IMG/VR virus record: IMGVR_UViG_3300032116_000250 | Location: 1 to 55,587 of that record | Strand: one strand, 5' to 3' | Origin: a virus | Length of the DNA stretch: 55,587 bases | Shown: positions 10,956 to 35,277 of the stretch, piece by piece | Layout: every line of letters starts with the position of its first letter | Position numbering within the stretch: position 1 is the stretch's first letter | Made by a program: the position numbers and the translations under genes | Notes under the pieces: generated by a model | What the model was told of the DNA's origin: nothing | Databases searched by the model: none | The model's input: only the letters and a program-made list of their open reading frames with translations

Positions 10956-11485
10956 GGGATGACATCCTTGAGGTCTCGGAGGGCTTGTTTGGTGAACGCA
11001 CGCAACTCAGCGGGTGTCGGCGGGTTCTTCTCATAGAGCAACCGCATCGACTCCTTGAACTGATCCTGAAACTCCTTGAGGGCAATCCCCTTGGTAAGGT
11101 TACGTGCAATCAGGAGTTCCGCCAGCAGGGGGATGACCTTCGAGTGCTCAGCAAACCTGTCGGGCTTGATGCGGCCCTTCACGATCTCCTTGAGGGCGAA
11201 GTTGGGGGAGCCCGGCCGCCCACACTTGAACAGGGCGACCTCCACCCAGAACCCGTGGTAGTACCTCACCCCATCGGGCATCAGTACGTAGGGGACCCCC
11301 AGGTAGTACATGAAGGTCCGCACTCCCTCCAGACTGTCGATGCCGCACCCCTGAAGCATCTTGTAGTAGTGGCCTTCGCTGTAGTACCGGTTACCCACAG
11401 AGGTAGCGAAGAACCCCAGTGGAATAGTTGTGCGGTCCTTGTAGCCAACGTTGGTTTTGAAGGGATATTTGCCTTTTCGAGCCAT
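10838..11485 (-). CDS. Hypothetical protein, first gene of the leftward packaging operon
   Basis: A 215-aa protein with ATG 11485 and AAGGA close upstream. It is the first leftward gene and is divergent from the helicase across a 121-bp control gap. The N terminus is basic (MARKGKYPFKTN). The body has aromatic-rich segments (YYSEGHYYKMLQG, RYYHGFWVEVALF) and charged helices (LKEFQDQFKESMRLLYEKN). The last 40 residues are Ser/Thr/Glu-rich and overlap the next frame. No family recognised. It could be a DNA-binding or packaging accessory protein, judging only by position. Confidence 0.65.
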   Translation of the reverse strand: MARKGKYPFKTNVGYKDRTTIPLGFFATSVGNRYYSEGHYYKMLQGCGIDSLEGVRTFMYYLGVPYVLMPDGVRYYHGFWVEVALFKCGRPGSPNFALKEIVKGRIKPDRFAEHSKVIPLLAELLIARNLTKGIALKEFQDQFKESMRLLYEKNPPTPAELRAFTKQALRDLKDVIPWNPPTRDKVPETPESTQAKSPEAQDSTASSTVREQTSP

Positions 11486-11606
11486 TTTCCTTGGGGTCCA
11501 GAGGGTGAGGAACTATACTTCAGTCCGTCCCAAAAACTTAAAAACACGTGTGTACTCGTGTACTGTTCCCCAGAGCATATCCCCCCTGACCCCCGGAGTC
11601 TACCCC
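11486..11606. promoter_or_regulatory. Divergent control region between packaging operon and helicase
   Basis: A 121-bp gap between divergent genes, AT-richer than its surroundings (AAAAACTTAAAAAC). It holds a TGTACT direct-repeat pair at 11551-11564, a TATACT at 11514-11519 (TATAGT on the minus strand, a possible leftward -10 box), and the CCCGGAG ribosome-binding site for the TTG start at 11607. No convincing -35 boxes could be fixed. Confidence 0.45.
11551..11564 (+). repeat. TGTACT-N2-TGTACT paired repeat upstream of the helicase
   Basis: TGTACTCGTGTACT: two TGTACT units in direct orientation with 8-bp period. It is the same unit as in the two 85-bp modules at 13231 and 35521, and is likely bound by a protein encoded here or by the helicase itself. 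Confidence 0.6.
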
Positions 11607-13076
11607 TTGACCACCTTGAGTCTTCCTGTCACCCGTCCGGTCCTCGTGGCCAAGTTCCTCGTCAACAAGTTCTTCCGTACACCCGGGGGTAAGCAGGGCA
11701 TCTGGTACCACAAGGGCAAGTTCTGGTGCTGGCGGGCCGAGGTCTGGAAGGAGTACACCCGCGACCAGATGCGTGCCGAGATATCCCGCACCCTCATGGA
11801 CGCCACCGTCATCAAGGAGGACGGCAGCACCAGCCCCCTGAACCCCGGCACGTCCACGGTTGAGGACGTGACCACCTTCGTACAGGACCTCTGCGAGTGT
11901 CCCTACGAGAGGTTGCCCGTGTGGTTGCACGGCACGACCCCCGACGGTCTGAACCCCGATCTCGTCGTTGCGTTCCGCGACAAGCTCGTCAGCGTCGAGG
12001 GGGGTGAGTTCAAGTTGATGGACCGCACCGAGGACTGGCTGGACAACGGCGTGCTCGATGCCTCATGGGAGGACGGCCAGTCCGGGGAGTGCCCCACGTG
12101 GATGCGGTGCCTAGCCGAGTGGTCCGGGGGTGACCCCCAGTGGATCGCCCTCATGCAGCAGTGGATGGGCTACAACTTGGTTCCGTCCCGTAGGCGTGCC
12201 CGTTGGATGCTGAAGCACGGCAGCATCCGTGGCGGTAAGGGCACCAGCGACCGGGTGTTGCAGCGGATCATGGGTCCCACAGTGTGCCGGGGCATGTCCA
12301 TGATGGGGCTGACGCGGCAGTTTGGTCTCACGGGGCTGGTCCACGCACGGAGTATCCTCATCTCGGAGTGCCACGAGATGCAGAGTGCCCAGGGGAGCCA
12401 GCTTGCCAGCCTCATCAAGAGTGCTCTGGGTGAGGACCCCCTCGATGTGGATGTGAAGTACGGGGCGGTGCTCCAGAATGTGGTGCTCCGATGTGCCATC
12501 ACGGTGTCCTCCAATGAGATCCCCACCATGCCCAACAAGGGGTCCGGGTTGTCGGGCAAGATGCTGGTCCTCCCCTTCGTACATAGCTTCGTGGACCGCG
12601 AGGACTTCAACCTTGAGGACAAGTTGGCAGCGGAACGGTCCGCCATCGCCGTGTGGGCCATGCAGGGGGCCCTTCAGGTGAGTGGTGCATCGTCCCGGTG
12701 GGCCGTCGCCAACGGGACCCGCGAGGTGATGCTGGAGTACACCACCTACAAGAACCCCGTGGGCCAATTTCTGGAGGACGCCATGTCCGTCCGCGTGGGT
12801 AACCGGGTGGATTTCAACGAGGTGGTGTGGCCCCGCTGGCAGAAGTGGTGTGCGGAGAACAAGCACACCGAGAACACCTCGAAGAAGGAGTTGCAGACCC
12901 GCCTCAAAGAGCAGGCCGGATGGCATCTGAAGGTCGTTAGGCCTGTAGCCGGGGGTCCCTACTACCTTGAGGGTGCTATCCCCAAGTCGTGGGATGTCAG
13001 GCAGGGCCCCGTTGGGCCCGTGGTAGGTGTGGAGGACCGCGAGGACACCGACCTTCAGGAAGGCCCCAACGATTAA
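11607..13076 (+). CDS. SF3 (P4/D5-type) replicative helicase
   Basis: A 489-aa ATPase of the phage/plasmid primase-helicase family, which unwinds DNA as a ring at the phage origin. Walker A is GSIRGGKGT at 205-213, Walker B is SILISECHE at 249-257, and the motif C sensor is ITVSSNEIP at 298-306. KMLVLPF at 318-324 stands where the family has RxxxLPF. I choose the TTG at 11607 because GGAG lies 8 bases before it; upstream in-frame codons run through the divergent promoter. No primase (TOPRIM or AEP) motif is visible in the N-terminal 200 residues, which are Trp/Arg-rich and may bind DNA. It lies next to an origin-like region. Confidence 0.85.
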   Translation: MTTLSLPVTRPVLVAKFLVNKFFRTPGGKQGIWYHKGKFWCWRAEVWKEYTRDQMRAEISRTLMDATVIKEDGSTSPLNPGTSTVEDVTTFVQDLCECPYERLPVWLHGTTPDGLNPDLVVAFRDKLVSVEGGEFKLMDRTEDWLDNGVLDASWEDGQSGECPTWMRCLAEWSGGDPQWIALMQQWMGYNLVPSRRRARWMLKHGSIRGGKGTSDRVLQRIMGPTVCRGMSMMGLTRQFGLTGLVHARSILISECHEMQSAQGSQLASLIKSALGEDPLDVDVKYGAVLQNVVLRCAITVSSNEIPTMPNKGSGLSGKMLVLPFVHSFVDREDFNLEDKLAAERSAIAVWAMQGALQVSGASSRWAVANGTREVMLEYTTYKNPVGQFLEDAMSVRVGNRVDFNEVVWPRWQKWCAENKHTENTSKKELQTRLKEQAGWHLKVVRPVAGGPYYLEGAIPKSWDVRQGPVGPVVGVEDREDTDLQEGPND

Positions 13077-20196: not shown

Positions 20197-20874
20197 ATGA
20201 TCACCCATACCACCAGCACCCTCACCTACATCGACCACATGGGCGACGACCGACGCATTGCGGAGGCCGCCTGGGTCTCCAGCAGCAGAGGCTCCAACCG
20301 CACCGACGAAGAGGTCGCCCGCGTCATCCGCTACCTCGCCCGCAACAACCACTGGACCCCCTTCGGCCAAACCAGCATCACCATCCGTTTCCACGTACCC
20401 ATCTTCGTCGCCCGCCAACTCCTGAGGTCAAACGTCGGCATCGTCTGGAACGAAGAATCCCGGCGTTACATCACCAACGAACCCGAGTTCTACATCCCCA
20501 AGTTCAGGGAACGCAGCCCCAGTATGAAGCAGGGCAGCGGCGGACCCCTGGGTGAAGCCCTCAACCAGACCATCGGTACGACCTACCGCGACATGACTGA
20601 ACAAGCCCTGATCTTCTACAACCTCATGCTCCTCCAAGGGGTAGCCCCCGAACAGGCAAGGACAATCCTCCCCCAGAACATGTTCACCAGCATCATGGGA
20701 ACGTTCTCTCTGGCGGCACTCGCGAGGCTCTACTCCCTGCGTTCTCACCCCCACGCCCAGCAGGAAATCCAGGAGGTCGCGGGGTCAATCAACCAACTCA
20801 TGGGAGAACAACCCCTGGGTAATGCCTTCGCCGTGTCCTGGCCCGCCCTCACCACAGGAGCAACCCTTGAGTAA
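20197..20874 (+). CDS. thyX: Flavin-dependent thymidylate synthase
   Basis: A 225-aa protein that would make dTMP from dUMP with FAD and methylene-tetrahydrofolate. Typical ThyX pattern: NHWTPFGQTSITIRFHVPIF (51-70), then VARQLLRSNVGIVWNEESRR (71-90), then a helical half with LPQNMFTSIMGTFSLAALAR. The signature, normally RHR-x7-S or KHQVG-x2-NE-x-S, reads RSNVGIVWNEES here, so the His/Gln positions are Ser/Asn. The downstream NEESRRY needed for dUMP binding is kept. The gene follows the foreign cassette. Confidence 0.9.
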   Translation: MITHTTSTLTYIDHMGDDRRIAEAAWVSSSRGSNRTDEEVARVIRYLARNNHWTPFGQTSITIRFHVPIFVARQLLRSNVGIVWNEESRRYITNEPEFYIPKFRERSPSMKQGSGGPLGEALNQTIGTTYRDMTEQALIFYNLMLLQGVAPEQARTILPQNMFTSIMGTFSLAALARLYSLRSHPHAQQEIQEVAGSINQLMGEQPLGNAFAVSWPALTTGATLE

Positions 20875-24953: not shown

Positions 24954-25274
24954 ATGCCCACCCCCATCACACCCGACGACCTCTACCCCTGGGACCCTGC
25001 CGCACCCCAGTACATCACAACCCGCTTCGCCGACTCCAACCCCGTGGTCCCACTACCCGGACTCCCTTGCATCATCCTCTCGATGGACCTCCCCTACGTC
25101 GCAGTCTCTGTCCTCACTGAGAACGGCACCTTCGAGAACCCCCGGATCCTCGATACCAGGGATATCAAGTTTGCCCGCCTGACCACCGAGTTCGTCGAAC
25201 GCATCACAGCCCACATCCGCTCACCCCATGAATACCCCACTGCCCCAGTTCTACCCCGGGATCAACCCGAGTGA
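24954..25274 (+). CDS. Small hypothetical protein
   Basis: A 106-aa protein from ATG 24954. Pro-rich start, then a beta-rich domain (VPLPGLPCIILSMDLPYVAV) and a helical end (LTTEFVERITAHIRSPHEYP). It overlaps the start of the glycosylase-like gene by 47 bases, suggesting coupled translation. No family recognised. Confidence 0.6.
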   Translation: MPTPITPDDLYPWDPAAPQYITTRFADSNPVVPLPGLPCIILSMDLPYVAVSVLTENGTFENPRILDTRDIKFARLTTEFVERITAHIRSPHEYPTAPVLPRDQPE

Positions 25275-26001
25275 AGGCTGCACCCACTGCACCCTCAACA
25301 CCGGCTGCAAACGCCCCGGCATCTCCAGCACCATCAGGGGCCCCTGGGACTCCCACCGCCCCACCCTCTACGTCCTCGGTATGAACCCCGGGCTGGAAGA
25401 AGACACCTACGGCGTCCCCTTCATAGGTCCATCCGGCAAGCTCCTCACCAACACCTACCTCGGGTCCACGGGCATCGACAAGCTCGCCAACATCATCATC
25501 GCCAACACCGCCCGCTGCTACACCAGCACCAAACCTCCCACCGCCAAACAGTTCCGCGAGTGCACCACCCGGTGGAACCTCCCCGAGCTAGCTCATCTGC
25601 ACGGCGTCTCCCGTTCCCTGAGCATACTGGCACTAGGTTCTCACGCCATCGGCACGTTGACCAAACTGTTCGACGGCAAGGCCCTACCCCTGGCAAGTGC
25701 CATCAAGTCCCAACCCCTGAGCATTGCCGTGGGTGACGACAACGTCCCCGTGTTCATTACCTACCACCCCGCCGCACTCCTCCGCGATAACTCCCTGATC
25801 CAGGCCGTGCGTGACCACCTGCACCACCTGCACAATCACCTCCTGGGTCACGAGCCCTTCGCCAGCACCCCCACCATCGTACCTCCAGCACCTCCCCTCA
25901 CGAAGGATGATGACACATGCACACCCCTGGTCCCTGGAAGATCTACACCGCACGATCCGACAACATCTACATCGGAACCATCAACCCTGACCCTGAGCTA
26001 G
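25228..26001 (+). CDS. Uracil-DNA glycosylase superfamily protein (family 4/5-like)
   Basis: A 257-aa protein. Key pattern: GMNPGLEEDTYGVPFIGPSG at 51-70, the family 4 active-site and phosphate loop, and HPAALLR at 180-186, the closing motif. Cysteines at 18, 21, 27 and 97 could hold an iron-sulphur cluster, though the spacing is not fully canonical. The expected reaction is removal of uracil from DNA. The last 65 residues (Pro/Thr/Ser-rich) overlap the next gene and look like an added tail. Confidence 0.8.
   Translation: MNTPLPQFYPGINPSEGCTHCTLNTGCKRPGISSTIRGPWDSHRPTLYVLGMNPGLEEDTYGVPFIGPSGKLLTNTYLGSTGIDKLANIIIANTARCYTSTKPPTAKQFRECTTRWNLPELAHLHGVSRSLSILALGSHAIGTLTKLFDGKALPLASAIKSQPLSIAVGDDNVPVFITYHPAALLRDNSLIQAVRDHLHHLHNHLLGHEPFASTPTIVPPAPPLTKDDDTCTPLVPGRSTPHDPTTSTSEPSTLTLS
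25891..25901 (-). repeat. GTGAGGGGAGG dispersed repeat, copy 8
   Basis: Exact copy in the C-terminal tail of the glycosylase-like gene, read as Pro-Pro-Leu-Thr, just before the ribosome-binding region of the next gene. Confidence 0.8.
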
Positions 26002-26265: not shown

Positions 26266-28314
26266 ATGACGTCCTCACGCCTGATCTCACTGGACACTGA
26301 ATCCTATGGAAGCGTCACCCACACCCACCTCGGTACACCTCTCACCCGGCAAAACCATTTCCATCCTCTGCGATGCATGGTACAAGACCACCCCCCTGGT
26401 CCTGACTATCTCGCTCACACGGTTACCATCACAGAGATACTACATGGTCGAGATCCTGGAGACATCACCCTCTGGGAACCCGGCACCACACAAGTCCTAC
26501 ATCCCTACCTCCCAGGTCATAGAAGAATCCTCATCCAGTGGCTGCGACATGCAACGACAATCCTCGGGACCAATGTACCGTACGACATCAAAATGCTCTG
26601 GGCTGCATTCCCCGAAGTGCGTTCCTCCCTCTCTCGGCTCACCCACCGGTTGGTGGACGTTACAGTCCTGAACTACCTCCACAGCGAACTCCGACCAGAG
26701 CGTTCTTTGAAATCCCTCGGTCCACTGCTGGGTACCCACCGCTACGACCGCACCCTCAACGCCGACGGTCGCTTCCCCCGGCCCAGTGACCCGGCCCACG
26801 AGAGCTACGCCGCCCAGGACTCCCACAACAACATCCTCGCCGCCAACGCCCTCGCAAGAGGCATCCTCAGGGACCACCCGGGTAGTGCCAAGCTCACCCC
26901 CTACTCCCAGAACTTCTACAGCAACACCCTCTGGACCTGTATCGAGATGTCATACGCCGGGGTCCCCTTCGTAGGGTCCAAGCTCACCAAGCTCCACGAG
27001 GACATGCTCGCGAAGCACTCCACCCTCGGTGAGGCCCTCCGCCCCTACGACCTCCACCCCGACGGCCCCGAACCCCAGATCCGCAGGAACAAATTCCTGA
27101 CCCAGTGCGTGGACCAACTCGTCGAGCACAACCCTACCGCCATGGACCGTCTGGAACTCACCGACAAGACCAAGGCCATCCGCTTCAGCAGTGCCAACAG
27201 GTCCATCCTTCGTACGAGCATCCCCCAGAACTCGCCCCTCCAGCAGGCACTCACCCTGTTCGATGAGTTCAGCTACGCCGACAAACTCCTCGGCACCTAC
27301 ACCTGGAAACGCCTGCACCACAAACGCAAGGACCCCACCAACCAGCGGGACAAACTCCTTCCCCACCCTACCTTCCCCGATACATTGATGGCGTACCCCT
27401 CATGGTACCCCACACCTGCTCCCGAGAAGGACGGGCAGGGCGATGAAGGTGGTACCAAGCAGGCCCGCATCACCGCAAAGTATCCAACCTTGCAGACCGA
27501 CCCCCCGGAACTCCAAGCCTGCCTCCAACCCCTCATCTCCTGCGACCTCTCCCAGATCGAACTGCGTGTACCTGGCATCCTCTCCGGTGAGCCCGCCATG
27601 CTCCGTGCGTACAACGAGGGCATCGACCTCCACTACGAACGCGGCGACTCCATGGCGGCGATATTGCTTGACTACAACCCCGAGATGTACCACGAGCTGC
27701 TCACCAAACTGGGTGATAAGTTCCGCAAGGTCTTCCGTCAGGGTGGCAAGGGCATCAACTTCGCCGACCTCTTCTGGAGTTCAGCAGCCACCATGCAAGC
27801 CCAGGTCGCAGGGCTCATGGGCATCGTCCTGCCCCTTGACTTCTTCCAACGCATCGCCGACAACAGGTCCAAAGACCGACCCGTCCTGTACGCCTGGCAG
27901 GAATCCCTGGTACGTGAGGCCCACAGCACCAACAAGCTCACCCTACCCCTGGTCGGGCAGTCCCGTTACTTCTGGCCCAAACAGAAGAAGGGTCGTCGCA
28001 CCGCGTGGCCCACCAACGAGATCGTGAACTTCCCCGTACAAGCCACCGCAGGCAACGTCATGCTCGACTTCCAGTCCCGGGTCCAGACCCACTTCCTACA
28101 GCACAACCTCCCCTACCGCGTGTGCCTCAACATCTACGACGCCTTCTACATACGGCATCTCTTGAGGCCAACGTTCACGGGGTCTGAGAGCACCCGCATC
28201 ACAGGCATCATCAACGAGTGCCTCCACGAGGTTACTACCCGGGGGTACTGGCATGACCTCCAGCAGCACTACGGCCGCACCCTCCCCCTCGTTATTGAGA
28301 TCAAAACCCCATGA
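26266..28314 (+). CDS. Family A DNA polymerase with proofreading exonuclease
   Basis: A 682-aa replicative polymerase from ATG 26266. Exonuclease: Exo I LDTES (D10, E12), Exo II N103 and D107 in TNVPYD, Exo III YAAQD (Y181, D185). Polymerase: motif A CDLSQIELRV (426-435, D427), motif B/O-helix FRQGGKGINFADLF with K495 and F499, and motif C NIYDAFY (622-628, catalytic D625). Motif C lacks the usual His and Glu of HDE (here Y-D-A). The TLQTDPPE segment upstream of motif A also fits family A. It acts with the SF3 helicase in genome replication. Confidence 0.93.
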   Translation: MTSSRLISLDTESYGSVTHTHLGTPLTRQNHFHPLRCMVQDHPPGPDYLAHTVTITEILHGRDPGDITLWEPGTTQVLHPYLPGHRRILIQWLRHATTILGTNVPYDIKMLWAAFPEVRSSLSRLTHRLVDVTVLNYLHSELRPERSLKSLGPLLGTHRYDRTLNADGRFPRPSDPAHESYAAQDSHNNILAANALARGILRDHPGSAKLTPYSQNFYSNTLWTCIEMSYAGVPFVGSKLTKLHEDMLAKHSTLGEALRPYDLHPDGPEPQIRRNKFLTQCVDQLVEHNPTAMDRLELTDKTKAIRFSSANRSILRTSIPQNSPLQQALTLFDEFSYADKLLGTYTWKRLHHKRKDPTNQRDKLLPHPTFPDTLMAYPSWYPTPAPEKDGQGDEGGTKQARITAKYPTLQTDPPELQACLQPLISCDLSQIELRVPGILSGEPAMLRAYNEGIDLHYERGDSMAAILLDYNPEMYHELLTKLGDKFRKVFRQGGKGINFADLFWSSAATMQAQVAGLMGIVLPLDFFQRIADNRSKDRPVLYAWQESLVREAHSTNKLTLPLVGQSRYFWPKQKKGRRTAWPTNEIVNFPVQATAGNVMLDFQSRVQTHFLQHNLPYRVCLNIYDAFYIRHLLRPTFTGSESTRITGIINECLHEVTTRGYWHDLQQHYGRTLPLVIEIKTP

Positions 28315-28607: not shown

Positions 28608-28624
28608 GTCTATACTGACCCATG
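28608..28624 (+). promoter_or_regulatory. Possible promoter at the nuclease start (near-leaderless)
   Basis: A TATACT box lies about 6 bases before the ATG at 28622, and no Shine-Dalgarno sequence is visible before that ATG. If the box is a real -10, transcripts would start at about the ATG, making a leaderless mRNA. The -35 region is unclear. Confidence 0.3.
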
Positions 28625-29155
28625 CACCGCGACTGGACCATCATCGTCGATGACCGGGAGAAGAAACCCCTACCCTTCCCCGAGCACCTAGTCATAGCAG
28701 ATGAGATCGGCAACCCCTGCACCATCCGCCTACACACCACCTCCCAACGTATCCACAAGGGTGACTACCACCTACTAGGTTACGAACGACACTGCGTCAT
28801 CGAACGCAAGGGCTCCCTAGGCGAGGTCCTCAACAACCTCAACACACCCGCGGCGGCAAAGAGGTTGGAGGACGAGATGTTCTACCTCCGGACCCACGTG
28901 GCTCACCCCGTGCTTCTGTTTGAGGGGGACTTCGGCCACCTCAACCCCAACCTCAGGGACGGCACACCCGCAGGTGCCGTCACCTACGGCCTCCTCGCAA
29001 TGCTGGCCCGCCACCGGATCACCCCGCTGTTCATGAGTTGTGCTACACTTGCCCAACGTCGTACGTTCGCGGAGAACACCGCCAGGTTACTGATCGCGGG
29101 TGCTCTCCACCTCAGCCAGCCTCAACCCCAACCTCAGGTGACTCATGCCACGTAA
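28622..29155 (+). CDS. ERCC4/XPF-type nuclease domain protein
   Basis: A 177-aa protein with the ERCC4 nuclease core: DDREKKP (10-16), KGDYHLLG (46-53) and VIERKGSLGEV (59-69), giving the Asp, Glu and Lys metal-dependent active site. Such phage proteins cut structured or single-stranded DNA during recombination or repair. The C terminus (Gln/Pro-rich) overlaps the next gene. Its neighbours are replication genes. Confidence 0.8.
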   Translation: MHRDWTIIVDDREKKPLPFPEHLVIADEIGNPCTIRLHTTSQRIHKGDYHLLGYERHCVIERKGSLGEVLNNLNTPAAAKRLEDEMFYLRTHVAHPVLLFEGDFGHLNPNLRDGTPAGAVTYGLLAMLARHRITPLFMSCATLAQRRTFAENTARLLIAGALHLSQPQPQPQVTHAT

Positions 29156-33633: not shown

Positions 33634-34560
33634 ATGCAGCAATCGTTCCAAGTGGGCACCCCCAAGTGGGGTACCGCCCTCGGTGGCATGACAAACTCGG
33701 TGATGGGGGCACCCGCCCACGCTATCCGTGCCATGATCCTCGGACGTCCCAAGGTCGGCAAGTCCACCTTCCTCCAGACCAACCCCGACGCCTTCATCTT
33801 CAACTTCGACGTGTCCCCCACCGTCACCAACGGGCCTGCTCCCGCCACCATCTGGCCCGGCGTCTCCAACGAAGGCCAACCCATTGAGTTCGATGGGAAG
33901 CCCTTCATCTTCCACTACAAGGAAGTGCTCCGCAAGATCATGGTCCTCAAGGAGTTGGCCGCCAAGGGCCAGGCTCGCCCCAAGACCATCGTGTTCGACA
34001 CCATCACGGTGTGGATCAAATTGCTCCGCGAGTATGTCACCCAGAACTCCGTGGTGCTGGGCCTCACCAAGGACGAAGTCAAAGAGTTCCGCCACCTCGA
34101 CGGACGCAGTGCCCACGACCTCGTCAACAACCTCATCCGCAACACCATCCTGGAACTGCACGCCTGCGGATACGGCGTCTACGTGGTGGGCCACATCGCC
34201 AATGCCAAGATCGCCCTGGCCGACGACATCACCAGCTACATCCCCGAGTTGAAGGGTGTGAGTGACGGCCTGTGGGCCTCCCTCCAAGGGCACCTCGACC
34301 TCATCGCGGCGTTCGAGAGCACCGTCCAACTGGTGAAAGAGCCCGTCTACAGCACCTCCAACCCCGGGATCAAGACCGGGGAACGCACGGTGTCCGTCAG
34401 CAAGCGTCAGATCGTCCTCAACAGTCCCGCATACGCAGGGTTGTGCGGCAAACGTGTCCGCACACTCCCTGATGCAATCCCCCTCGAAGCCGACACGGCT
34501 TGGGCAGACTTCGAGAAGGTTTACAACAACGCCCTCGCACAGCAGAAAGGTCTCGTATGA
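33634..34560 (+). CDS. Sak4-like RecA-fold ATPase (single-strand annealing recombinase)
   Basis: A 308-aa ATPase. Walker A is GRPKVGKST (37-45) and Walker B is TIVFDTIT (118-125). Downstream RecA-like segments include ILELHACGYGVYVVGHI and LKGVSDGLWASLQGHLDLIA. Phage Sak4 proteins of this size act in strand annealing or exchange together with an SSB-like partner, which is the next gene. ATG 33634 with AGGAG upstream. Naming as Sak4-like rests on motif layout and gene context. Confidence 0.8.
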   Translation: MQQSFQVGTPKWGTALGGMTNSVMGAPAHAIRAMILGRPKVGKSTFLQTNPDAFIFNFDVSPTVTNGPAPATIWPGVSNEGQPIEFDGKPFIFHYKEVLRKIMVLKELAAKGQARPKTIVFDTITVWIKLLREYVTQNSVVLGLTKDEVKEFRHLDGRSAHDLVNNLIRNTILELHACGYGVYVVGHIANAKIALADDITSYIPELKGVSDGLWASLQGHLDLIAAFESTVQLVKEPVYSTSNPGIKTGERTVSVSKRQIVLNSPAYAGLCGKRVRTLPDAIPLEADTAWADFEKVYNNALAQQKGLV

Positions 34561-35196: not shown

Positions 35197-35277
35197 GGCC
35201 CTGTAGCACAATGGTAGTGCGACGGCTCCGTAACCATCCGGGCCGACGAAGTGTGGGTTCGACTCCCACCAGGGCCA
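35197..35277 (+). tRNA. tRNA-like gene with enlarged anticodon arm (Arg-CCG or Thr-CGT)
   Basis: Acceptor GGCCCTG/CAGGGCC, D-stem GCAC/GTGC, T-arm GTGGG-TTCGACT-CCCAC and discriminator A are all normal. The anticodon arm is not. ACGGC (35222-35226) pairs with GCCGA (35242-35246) across a 15-nt loop, TCCGTAACCATCCGG. Removing the 8 bases 35234-35241 gives a normal 7-nt loop and a normal 73-nt tRNA. As written the anticodon is CGT by spacing (with C33) or CCG if U33 is used. No CCA is encoded. Confidence 0.6.

What the first reader, a model, noticed from the sequence alone, without database searches (positions are those of the whole stretch)
26266..28314. Family A polymerase with altered motif C (Y-D-A in place of H-D-E)
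Proofreading and motifs A and B look intact, and the catalytic Asp625 is present, but the flanking His and Glu are Tyr and Ala. This may alter metal binding or nucleotide choice and could point to a distinct subfamily, perhaps one adapted to modified DNA. The phage also encodes ThyX and a uracil-DNA glycosylase-like protein.
Basis: partly seen in the sequence, partly recalled or inferred. Interest (0 to 1): 0.5.

Follow-up and report, generated by a model that had tools for sequence, protein, structure and literature searches.

The report
Phage DNA polymerase subfamily, altered motif
This environmental phage carries a DNA polymerase of the bacterial Pol I kind with two unusual residues beside a catalytic aspartate; they turn out to be the hallmark of a group of uncultured phage polymerases that travel with a uracil-DNA glycosylase gene, and one of the two changes is common in phages and probably harmless.

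Summary
In detail: window 26266-28314 encodes a 682-aa family A DNA polymerase whose motif C reads Tyr624-Asp625-Ala626 in place of His-Asp-Glu. The two changes differ in meaning. Loss of the Glu is ordinary: 51 of 88 viral PolA rows lack it, while 77 of 79 sequences from bacterial genome contigs keep it; a paper on Thermus phage Tt72 Pol reports 76% activity with Ala there. The Tyr marks a subfamily: 75 of 78 rows (window included) carry it, two more have Phe, and on a tree built without those columns the 21 sampled members form one group (SH-aLRT 100). No member was seen among the named-phage matches listed. Motif B is also changed. A family-4-like uracil-DNA glycosylase lies upstream or is fused in 67 of 77 relatives. 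Modified DNA is not supported: ThyX is in 0 of 8 relatives' records and no modification enzyme was found among 29 window proteins. Best reading: an active, proofreading phage replicase using two aspartates. Unexpectedly, relatives (not the window) carry insertions in polymerase loops that encode small genes in the +2 frame while the polymerase frame stays open; in two relatives the polymerase gene is split there.

The parts
26266..28314 (+). family A DNA polymerase, 682 aa, 3'-5' exonuclease plus polymerase domain
26293..26301 (+). exonuclease motif I, D10-x-E12
26584..26586 (+). exonuclease motif II Asp107
26806..26820 (+). exonuclease motif III Y181-x3-D185
27544..27567 (+). motif A, D427-LSQIELR (catalytic Asp427; Glu432 = steric-gate position)
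27736..27777 (+). motif B, R491-x3-K495-x3-F499-x3-F503-W504; the usual Tyr-Gly end is altered
28027..28041 (+). N588-x3-Q592, conserved Asn/Gln pair before motif C
28135..28143 (+). motif C, Y624-D625-A626 (HDE in cellular Pol I)
25228..26001 (+). family-4-like uracil-DNA glycosylase, four conserved Cys; companion gene of the polymerase
11451..13076 (+). D5-like helicase candidate (Pox_D5 match, residues 435-488, 24.9 against 21.4 bits), possible replication partner
28622..29155 (+). ERCC4-type nuclease-like protein (PHROG E 9e-6; Pfam below its cut-off)
33634..34560 (+). Sak4-like recombination ATPase
20197..20874 (+). ThyX thymidylate synthase (not linked to the subfamily)

Best explanation
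It is the phage's own replicative DNA polymerase, a proofreading family A enzyme of a subfamily seen here only in environmental contigs and marked by motif C Tyr-Asp-Ala. Shown by computation: the fold, the intact exonuclease residues, the two catalytic aspartates (D427, D625), the subfamily, and the link with a glycosylase gene. Inferred: it copies DNA by the usual two-metal reaction held by D427 and D625 alone; A626 merely drops an auxiliary carboxylate that many phage PolAs have lost; Y624 replaces a His that, by recall, lies near the primer terminus in known enzymes, so it may change mismatch sensing or primer fit rather than chemistry. The glycosylase, upstream or fused, probably works at the fork beside the polymerase to remove or flag uracil.
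For: Pfam 42.9 bits over a 34.3 cut-off; AlphaFold2 model pLDDT 87.0, pTM 0.85; VIA-align Z 26.7, rmsd 3.4 over 531 residues to Bacillus Pol I 4dqi. D427, E432, R491, K495, F499, N588, Q592, D625 invariant in nine sequences. Motif C YDA 72, YDS 3, FDA 2, HDS 1 of 78 rows. Subfamily one group of 21 sampled rows, SH-aLRT 100, motif C columns left out. Glu absent in 51 of 88 viral rows, present in 77 of 79 rows from bacterial genome contigs. Tt72 Pol: S616A 76%, D384A 4%, D615A 4%, parent 89% of wild type (PMC9324360, passages). UDG upstream or fused in 67 of 77 loci; 8 of the other 10 have under 900 nt before the polymerase ORF. Replication and recombination type neighbours.
Against: I found no assay of a member, but did not check whether any of the virome polymerases expressed in PMC9069017 (passages seen) belongs here, and the literature searches were by words, not sequence. 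Motif B is altered at two further places, so activity is not certain. The role of the Tyr is a guess from recall. Tt72 Pol has Ser by nature and its sequence was not compared here, so its result may not carry over. NCBIfam Pol I models match far below their cut-offs (best 37.9 of 640 bits). The tree was built by the quick method and has long branches, the window's among them.
Confidence: 0.8

Rival explanations
1. Adaptation to modified DNA: the altered motif C accepts a modified dNTP or template base, with ThyX and the glycosylase as parts of a base-modification system.
For: The window has ThyX and a UDG-superfamily gene. A UDG-like gene also occurs in Bacillus phage SP-15, a phage recalled to have modified DNA.
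Against: ThyX in 0 of 8 relatives' records; no base-modification enzyme among 29 window proteins scanned (not every small ORF was scanned); the steric-gate Glu432 is kept; the subfamily spans many phages with one motif.
Confidence: 0.05
2. A structural or accessory polymerase with a weakened active site, the phage relying on another replicase.
For: Motif B and motif C both depart from the Pol I consensus.
Against: Both catalytic Asp and the exonuclease residues are conserved in the subfamily; only one PF00476 place in the window; the gene sits with replication genes. Other polymerase families were looked for only through the proteins scanned.
Confidence: 0.07
3. The glycosylase is mainly a polymerase tether or processivity factor, as vaccinia D4 is, and only secondarily a repair enzyme.
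For: Adjacent or fused in 67 of 77 loci; a UDG domain fused to 21 of 80 other viral PolA loci searched; four Cys kept in 61 of 63 rows, while motif 1 departs from G-x-x-P-G in 6 of 63. Vaccinia D4 has both roles (PMC10253040, abstract start seen in listing).
Against: Most rows keep both active-site motifs (57 of 63 and 61 of 63), which argues for real uracil excision. No physical contact was tested.
Confidence: 0.2

Closest known systems
Vibrio phage SIO-2 / VHS1-type PolA
   Same: Best named matches to the window (Vibrio rows 24.4-31.0% identity over 31-78% of the query); Glu of motif C also replaced (HDA in those aligned); exonuclease plus polymerase
   Different: His kept, motif B ending YG; no UDG match by Pfam in the SIO-2 or RcZahn records; separate branch of the tree
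Thermus phage vB_Tt72 DNA polymerase
   Same: Phage family A enzyme without the motif C Glu (Ser616), strong proofreading, active (PMC9324360, title and passages)
   Different: Ser instead of Ala by nature; its sequence was not aligned here
Bacterial Pol I large fragment (Bacillus, Taq)
   Same: Fold over 531 residues, two Asp, steric-gate Glu
   Different: HDE in motif C, Tyr-Gly at the end of motif B; 14% identity in the structural alignment to 4dqi
Other phage PolAs with an N-terminal UDG domain (e.g. L026, L035, L049)
   Same: UDG joined to PolA, and Glu absent in 20 of the 21 found (L045 has HDE)
   Different: His kept (HDS, HDA, HDG, HDQ, HDD, HDE); other branches of the tree. L083 (YDS) has only a sub-cut-off UDG match

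Membership tests
Family A DNA polymerase (PF00476) | Pfam match over the curated cut-off | tested here: met
   42.9 against 34.3 bits
Family A DNA polymerase (PF00476) | motif A Asp and motif C Asp (two catalytic aspartates) | tested here: met
   D427 and D625
Family A DNA polymerase (PF00476) | right-hand fold with 3'-5' exonuclease domain | tested here: met
   model pLDDT 87; Z 26.7 to 4dqi
Family A DNA polymerase (PF00476) | template-directed DNA synthesis | not testable with these tools
   needs purified enzyme
Cellular-type DNA polymerase I (HDE type) | His-Asp-Glu motif C | tested here: not met
   YDA; HDE in 77 of 79 rows from bacterial genome contigs
Cellular-type DNA polymerase I (HDE type) | NCBIfam equivalog cut-offs | tested here: not met
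   best 37.9 of 640 bits
YDA subfamily of phage PolA (defined here) | Tyr/Phe-Asp-Ala/Ser in motif C and placement in the group | tested here: met
YDA subfamily of phage PolA (defined here) | UDG gene just upstream or fused | tested here: met
   window 25228-26001; 67 of 77 relatives
Family 4 uracil-DNA glycosylase (upstream gene) | UDG superfamily match and four Fe-S type cysteines | tested here: met
   PF03167 55 against 24.3 bits; C18, C21, C97, C112
Family 4 uracil-DNA glycosylase (upstream gene) | curated family 4 cut-off (TIGR00758) | tested here: not met
   60.6 against 125.3 bits, hence 'family-4-like'
Modified-DNA phage polymerase | base-modification genes in the same phage | tested here: inconclusive
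   none found in 29 proteins scanned, but not every small ORF was scanned

The most novel reading that the evidence does not exclude
The polymerase gene of this subfamily is a landing place for other genes. In relatives (not in the window copy) small coding ORFs sit in loop insertions of the polymerase (after window residues 64, 205, 370 and, less clearly, 287) in the +2 frame, many with their own start and a Shine-Dalgarno-like sequence at the insert's edge, while the polymerase frame stays open as a linker; unrelated small proteins occupy the same site in different lineages, and in two lineages the polymerase has been split into two genes at one of these sites. A replicase that repeatedly hosts overprinted genes at its loops and domain joints would be a new kind of gene-in-gene arrangement.
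Probability: 0.6. Interest if true: 0.65.

Novelty: new variant of a known kind. Interest (0 to 1): 0.42.

Why it matters
It separates two changes that look equally odd in one sequence: loss of the motif C Glu is a common phage state with published evidence of little cost in one enzyme, whereas the Tyr (and altered motif B) marks a coherent subfamily found here only in environmental contigs. Such enzymes are useful for asking what the His and Glu of Pol I really do, and as possible new polymerase reagents. The steady link of a glycosylase with the replicase makes the role of uracil handling in phage replication testable. The nested genes in relatives, if confirmed, show how a replicase tolerates new coding sequence at its loops.

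Tried and rejected
Single-protein search for relatives of the polymerase in viral contigs found none; alignment queries were needed. The window's terminase had no match in named phages and two in viral contigs. A first glycosylase profile that included fused proteins drifted into the exonuclease domain and was thrown away; the count used comes from a profile built on stand-alone glycosylases. The glycosylase motif table left out rows under 180 aa and cut rows over 400 aa. The idea that the N-terminus of SIO-2-type polymerases is a decayed glycosylase was inconclusive (hhalign probability 29%). The idea that loss of Glu goes with a joined UDG: 38 of 39 UDG-linked rows lack Glu, 30 of 50 without UDG keep it (3 rows unknown; UDG presence for the window's group was entered; L083 was counted as without UDG although one search gives a weak match in its polymerase ORF), but only 4 independent pairs on supported branches exist (6 on all branches), so it cannot be told from shared descent; not claimed. 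A Pfam D5 helicase as constant partner: 2 of 8 relatives' records, one over the cut-off; not claimed. Not every insert holds a nested gene: of 12 at site 370, seven (L127, L139, L145, L151, L154, L155, L156) have no alternative ORF over half the insert and two (L165, L185) only a 33-aa one in +1, and all nine score best in the polymerase frame; L126 at 287 and L149 at 64 also score best in the polymerase frame; L167 at 64 has its longest ORF in +1. Literature: Czernecki et al. 2023 on reclassified family A polymerases is not held, so whether that work already delimits this group is unknown.

Full report
What is there. Window 26266-28314 (+) translates to 682 residues without a stop. It matches Pfam DNA_pol_A at 42.9 bits (cut-off 34.3) and PHROG 17, DNA polymerase (E 1.3e-29). 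Motif C is Y624-D625-A626. A profile of the window and eight homologues aligned to PDB chains places this on the HDE motif of Taq Pol I (two alignments shown). The exonuclease residues D10, E12, D107, Y181 and D185 are intact.

Structure. AlphaFold2 with an alignment of nine sequences gave mean pLDDT 87.0 and pTM 0.85; the only segment reported under 50 is 382-407. Foldseek's first PDB rows are bacterial Pol I chains, and VIA-align gives Z 26.7, rmsd 3.4 over 531 residues to Bacillus Pol I 4dqi. The model was not inspected atom by atom, as its coordinates were not among the files given to scripts.

How common is each change. Of 89 aligned viral PolA rows (window, seven named phage records, and loci; chosen by resemblance to the window and its kin, some near-copies included), 88 show motif C: HDE 37, HDS 21, HDA 17, YDA 8, YDS 2, HDD 1, HDQ 1, HDG 1; the last, L067, is cut short. 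So 51 of 88 lack Glu. Of 79 sequences from bacterial genome contigs, 77 are HDE, one YDE and one HDA. Loss of Glu is therefore an ordinary phage state; on the tree the trait needs at least 8 changes. Published work agrees: Thermus phage Tt72 Pol has Ser at this place, and Ala there left 76 +/- 3% activity (parent exonuclease-minus enzyme 89 +/- 5%) against 4% for either Asp change (PMC9324360, passages read).

The Tyr marks a subfamily. A profile search of viral contigs brought 126 relatives, of which the best 80 were kept. With the earlier ones and one genome contig, and after dropping 12 duplicates, 78 rows (window included) give YDA 72, YDS 3, FDA 2, HDS 1. On a tree of 92 rows built without the motif C columns and positions 503-504, the 21 sampled members are one side of a branch with SH-aLRT 100; His against Tyr/Phe needs 3 changes, which fits one gain in the group, L172 (HDS) within it, and the outsider L083 (quick method, 31 of 89 inner branches weak, several long branches). 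Searches of 50,697 phage records with the window and four relatives gave only matches under 60% identity; the rows listed, 6 to 38 of up to 1537 records, are 22-31% identical. The one further candidate read, MT838254, is HDE. One member lies on a 10.6-kb contig of a Phycisphaerae MAG (L185), a weak host hint.

The glycosylase companion. PF03167 is found over its cut-off in 7 of 8 records of subfamily members (the eighth is a 21.6-kb fragment). In 77 loci the gene is upstream on the same strand in 61, in the polymerase ORF in 6 (one, L020, cut by the contig end) and not seen in 10; 8 of those 10 have under 900 nt before the polymerase ORF, and the other two are the split genes L183 and L184. 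The five fused forms that are on the tree (L019, L021, L171, L172, L182) branch outside the 16-row inner group. Four cysteines are kept in 61 of 63 rows, and the H-P motif in 61 of 63. UDG domains also occur in the polymerase ORF of 21 of 80 other viral PolA loci searched. ThyX, in contrast, is in 0 of 8 relatives' records.

Mechanism. Established: family A polymerases hold two metals with the two aspartates. Inferred here: the enzyme works with D427 and D625 alone. Recalled, not tested: the His of HDE lies near the primer terminus, so Tyr may affect mismatch sensing. The glycosylase may act at the fork; whether as repair enzyme, sensor or tether is open. A parallel with vaccinia, whose D4 glycosylase is also a processivity factor (PMC10253040, abstract start in listing) and whose D5 is, by recall, a helicase (the window has a D5-like match), is only suggestive.

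Nested genes in relatives. While explaining odd polymerase lengths I found 33 inserts of 25 or more residues in 27 of 78 rows: 14 after window residue 64, 3 after 205, 4 after 287, 12 after 370. In the polymerase frame the long ones are Ser/Thr- or Pro-rich. In 22 of 33 the +2 frame has the best codon score (0.00 to 0.29, against 0.15 to 0.33 for true coding sequence outside), while outside the inserts the +2 frame scores -0.18 to -0.59; in 23 of 33 a +2 ORF covers more than half of the insert. At sites 205 and 370 these ORFs nearly equal the insert (in L179 by an inner ATG); at site 64 they start 4 nt before the insert in 11 of 14 and run on past its end; at site 287 three of four have their first start far upstream, so the case there is weaker. 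At site 64 AAGGA stands upstream in 10 of 14 and GGAG in 3, though those bases also encode polymerase residues. Between relatives the +2 products are better conserved than the polymerase-frame linker: z 32.0 against 9.1 (L170/L173, site 205), 12.3 against -0.2 (L178/L179, site 370), and 7.6-24.5 against 0.7-10.1 within the L016 group of five tested at site 64. Pairs from different groups at site 64 mostly show no likeness (z -1.6 to 5.3), so unrelated proteins seem to use the same site (9 of 14 rows tested at site 64). The chance that the polymerase frame stays open under random synonymous coding of the nested gene is 0.002 to 0.369 in ten cases tried, under 0.05 in six. In L183 and L184 the polymerase frame is broken at site 370 and the gene is in two pieces around a small ORF; the L184 small protein has a stand-alone relative in L167 (E 1.1e-8). 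The window polymerase shows no such region: its +1 and +2 frames score negative throughout. Expression was not tested, many rows are related, and one literature search gave no such report in its listing.

Verdict. Observation confirmed, interpretation partly supported: a distinct subfamily, yes; modified DNA, no evidence.

Noticed in passing
L014, L016, L126, L132, L138, L144, L148, L152, L153, L157, L160, L170, L173, L176, L178, L179 polymerase genes: Small ORFs with coding-like codon use nested in the +2 frame inside loop insertions of the polymerase (after window residues 64, 205, 287, 370), with the polymerase frame kept open.
   Followed up: yes
L183 3001-5610; L184 1032-3183: Polymerase gene split at the place of window residue about 371 by a stretch holding another small ORF; the polymerase frame is broken by stops or a frame change.
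   Followed up: partly
window ends and L010: A second contig, 100% identical over the 16,551 bases aligned, joins the window's end to its start with 661 bases between, so the genome seems circular or permuted and the window lacks about 0.7 kb.
   Followed up: partly
window 20197-20874: ThyX with RSNVGIVWNEESRRY where, by recall, the usual motif is RHRxxSxNExSxR; a ThyX variant.
   Followed up: no
window 35197-35277: ARAGORN calls a tRNA with a four-base anticodon (ccgt) next to a tRNA-Gln.
   Followed up: no
viral PolA rows: 38 of 39 PolAs joined to or beside a UDG lack the motif C Glu, against 20 of 50 without one; too few independent lineages to separate from descent.
   Followed up: partly
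L186 (Alphaproteobacteria MAG contig JAUIJX010000161.1): A PolA with YDE in motif C, Tyr with Glu kept.
   Followed up: no
L185 (PAFA01000027.1): A subfamily member with FDA on a contig binned as Phycisphaerae; possible host group.
   Followed up: no
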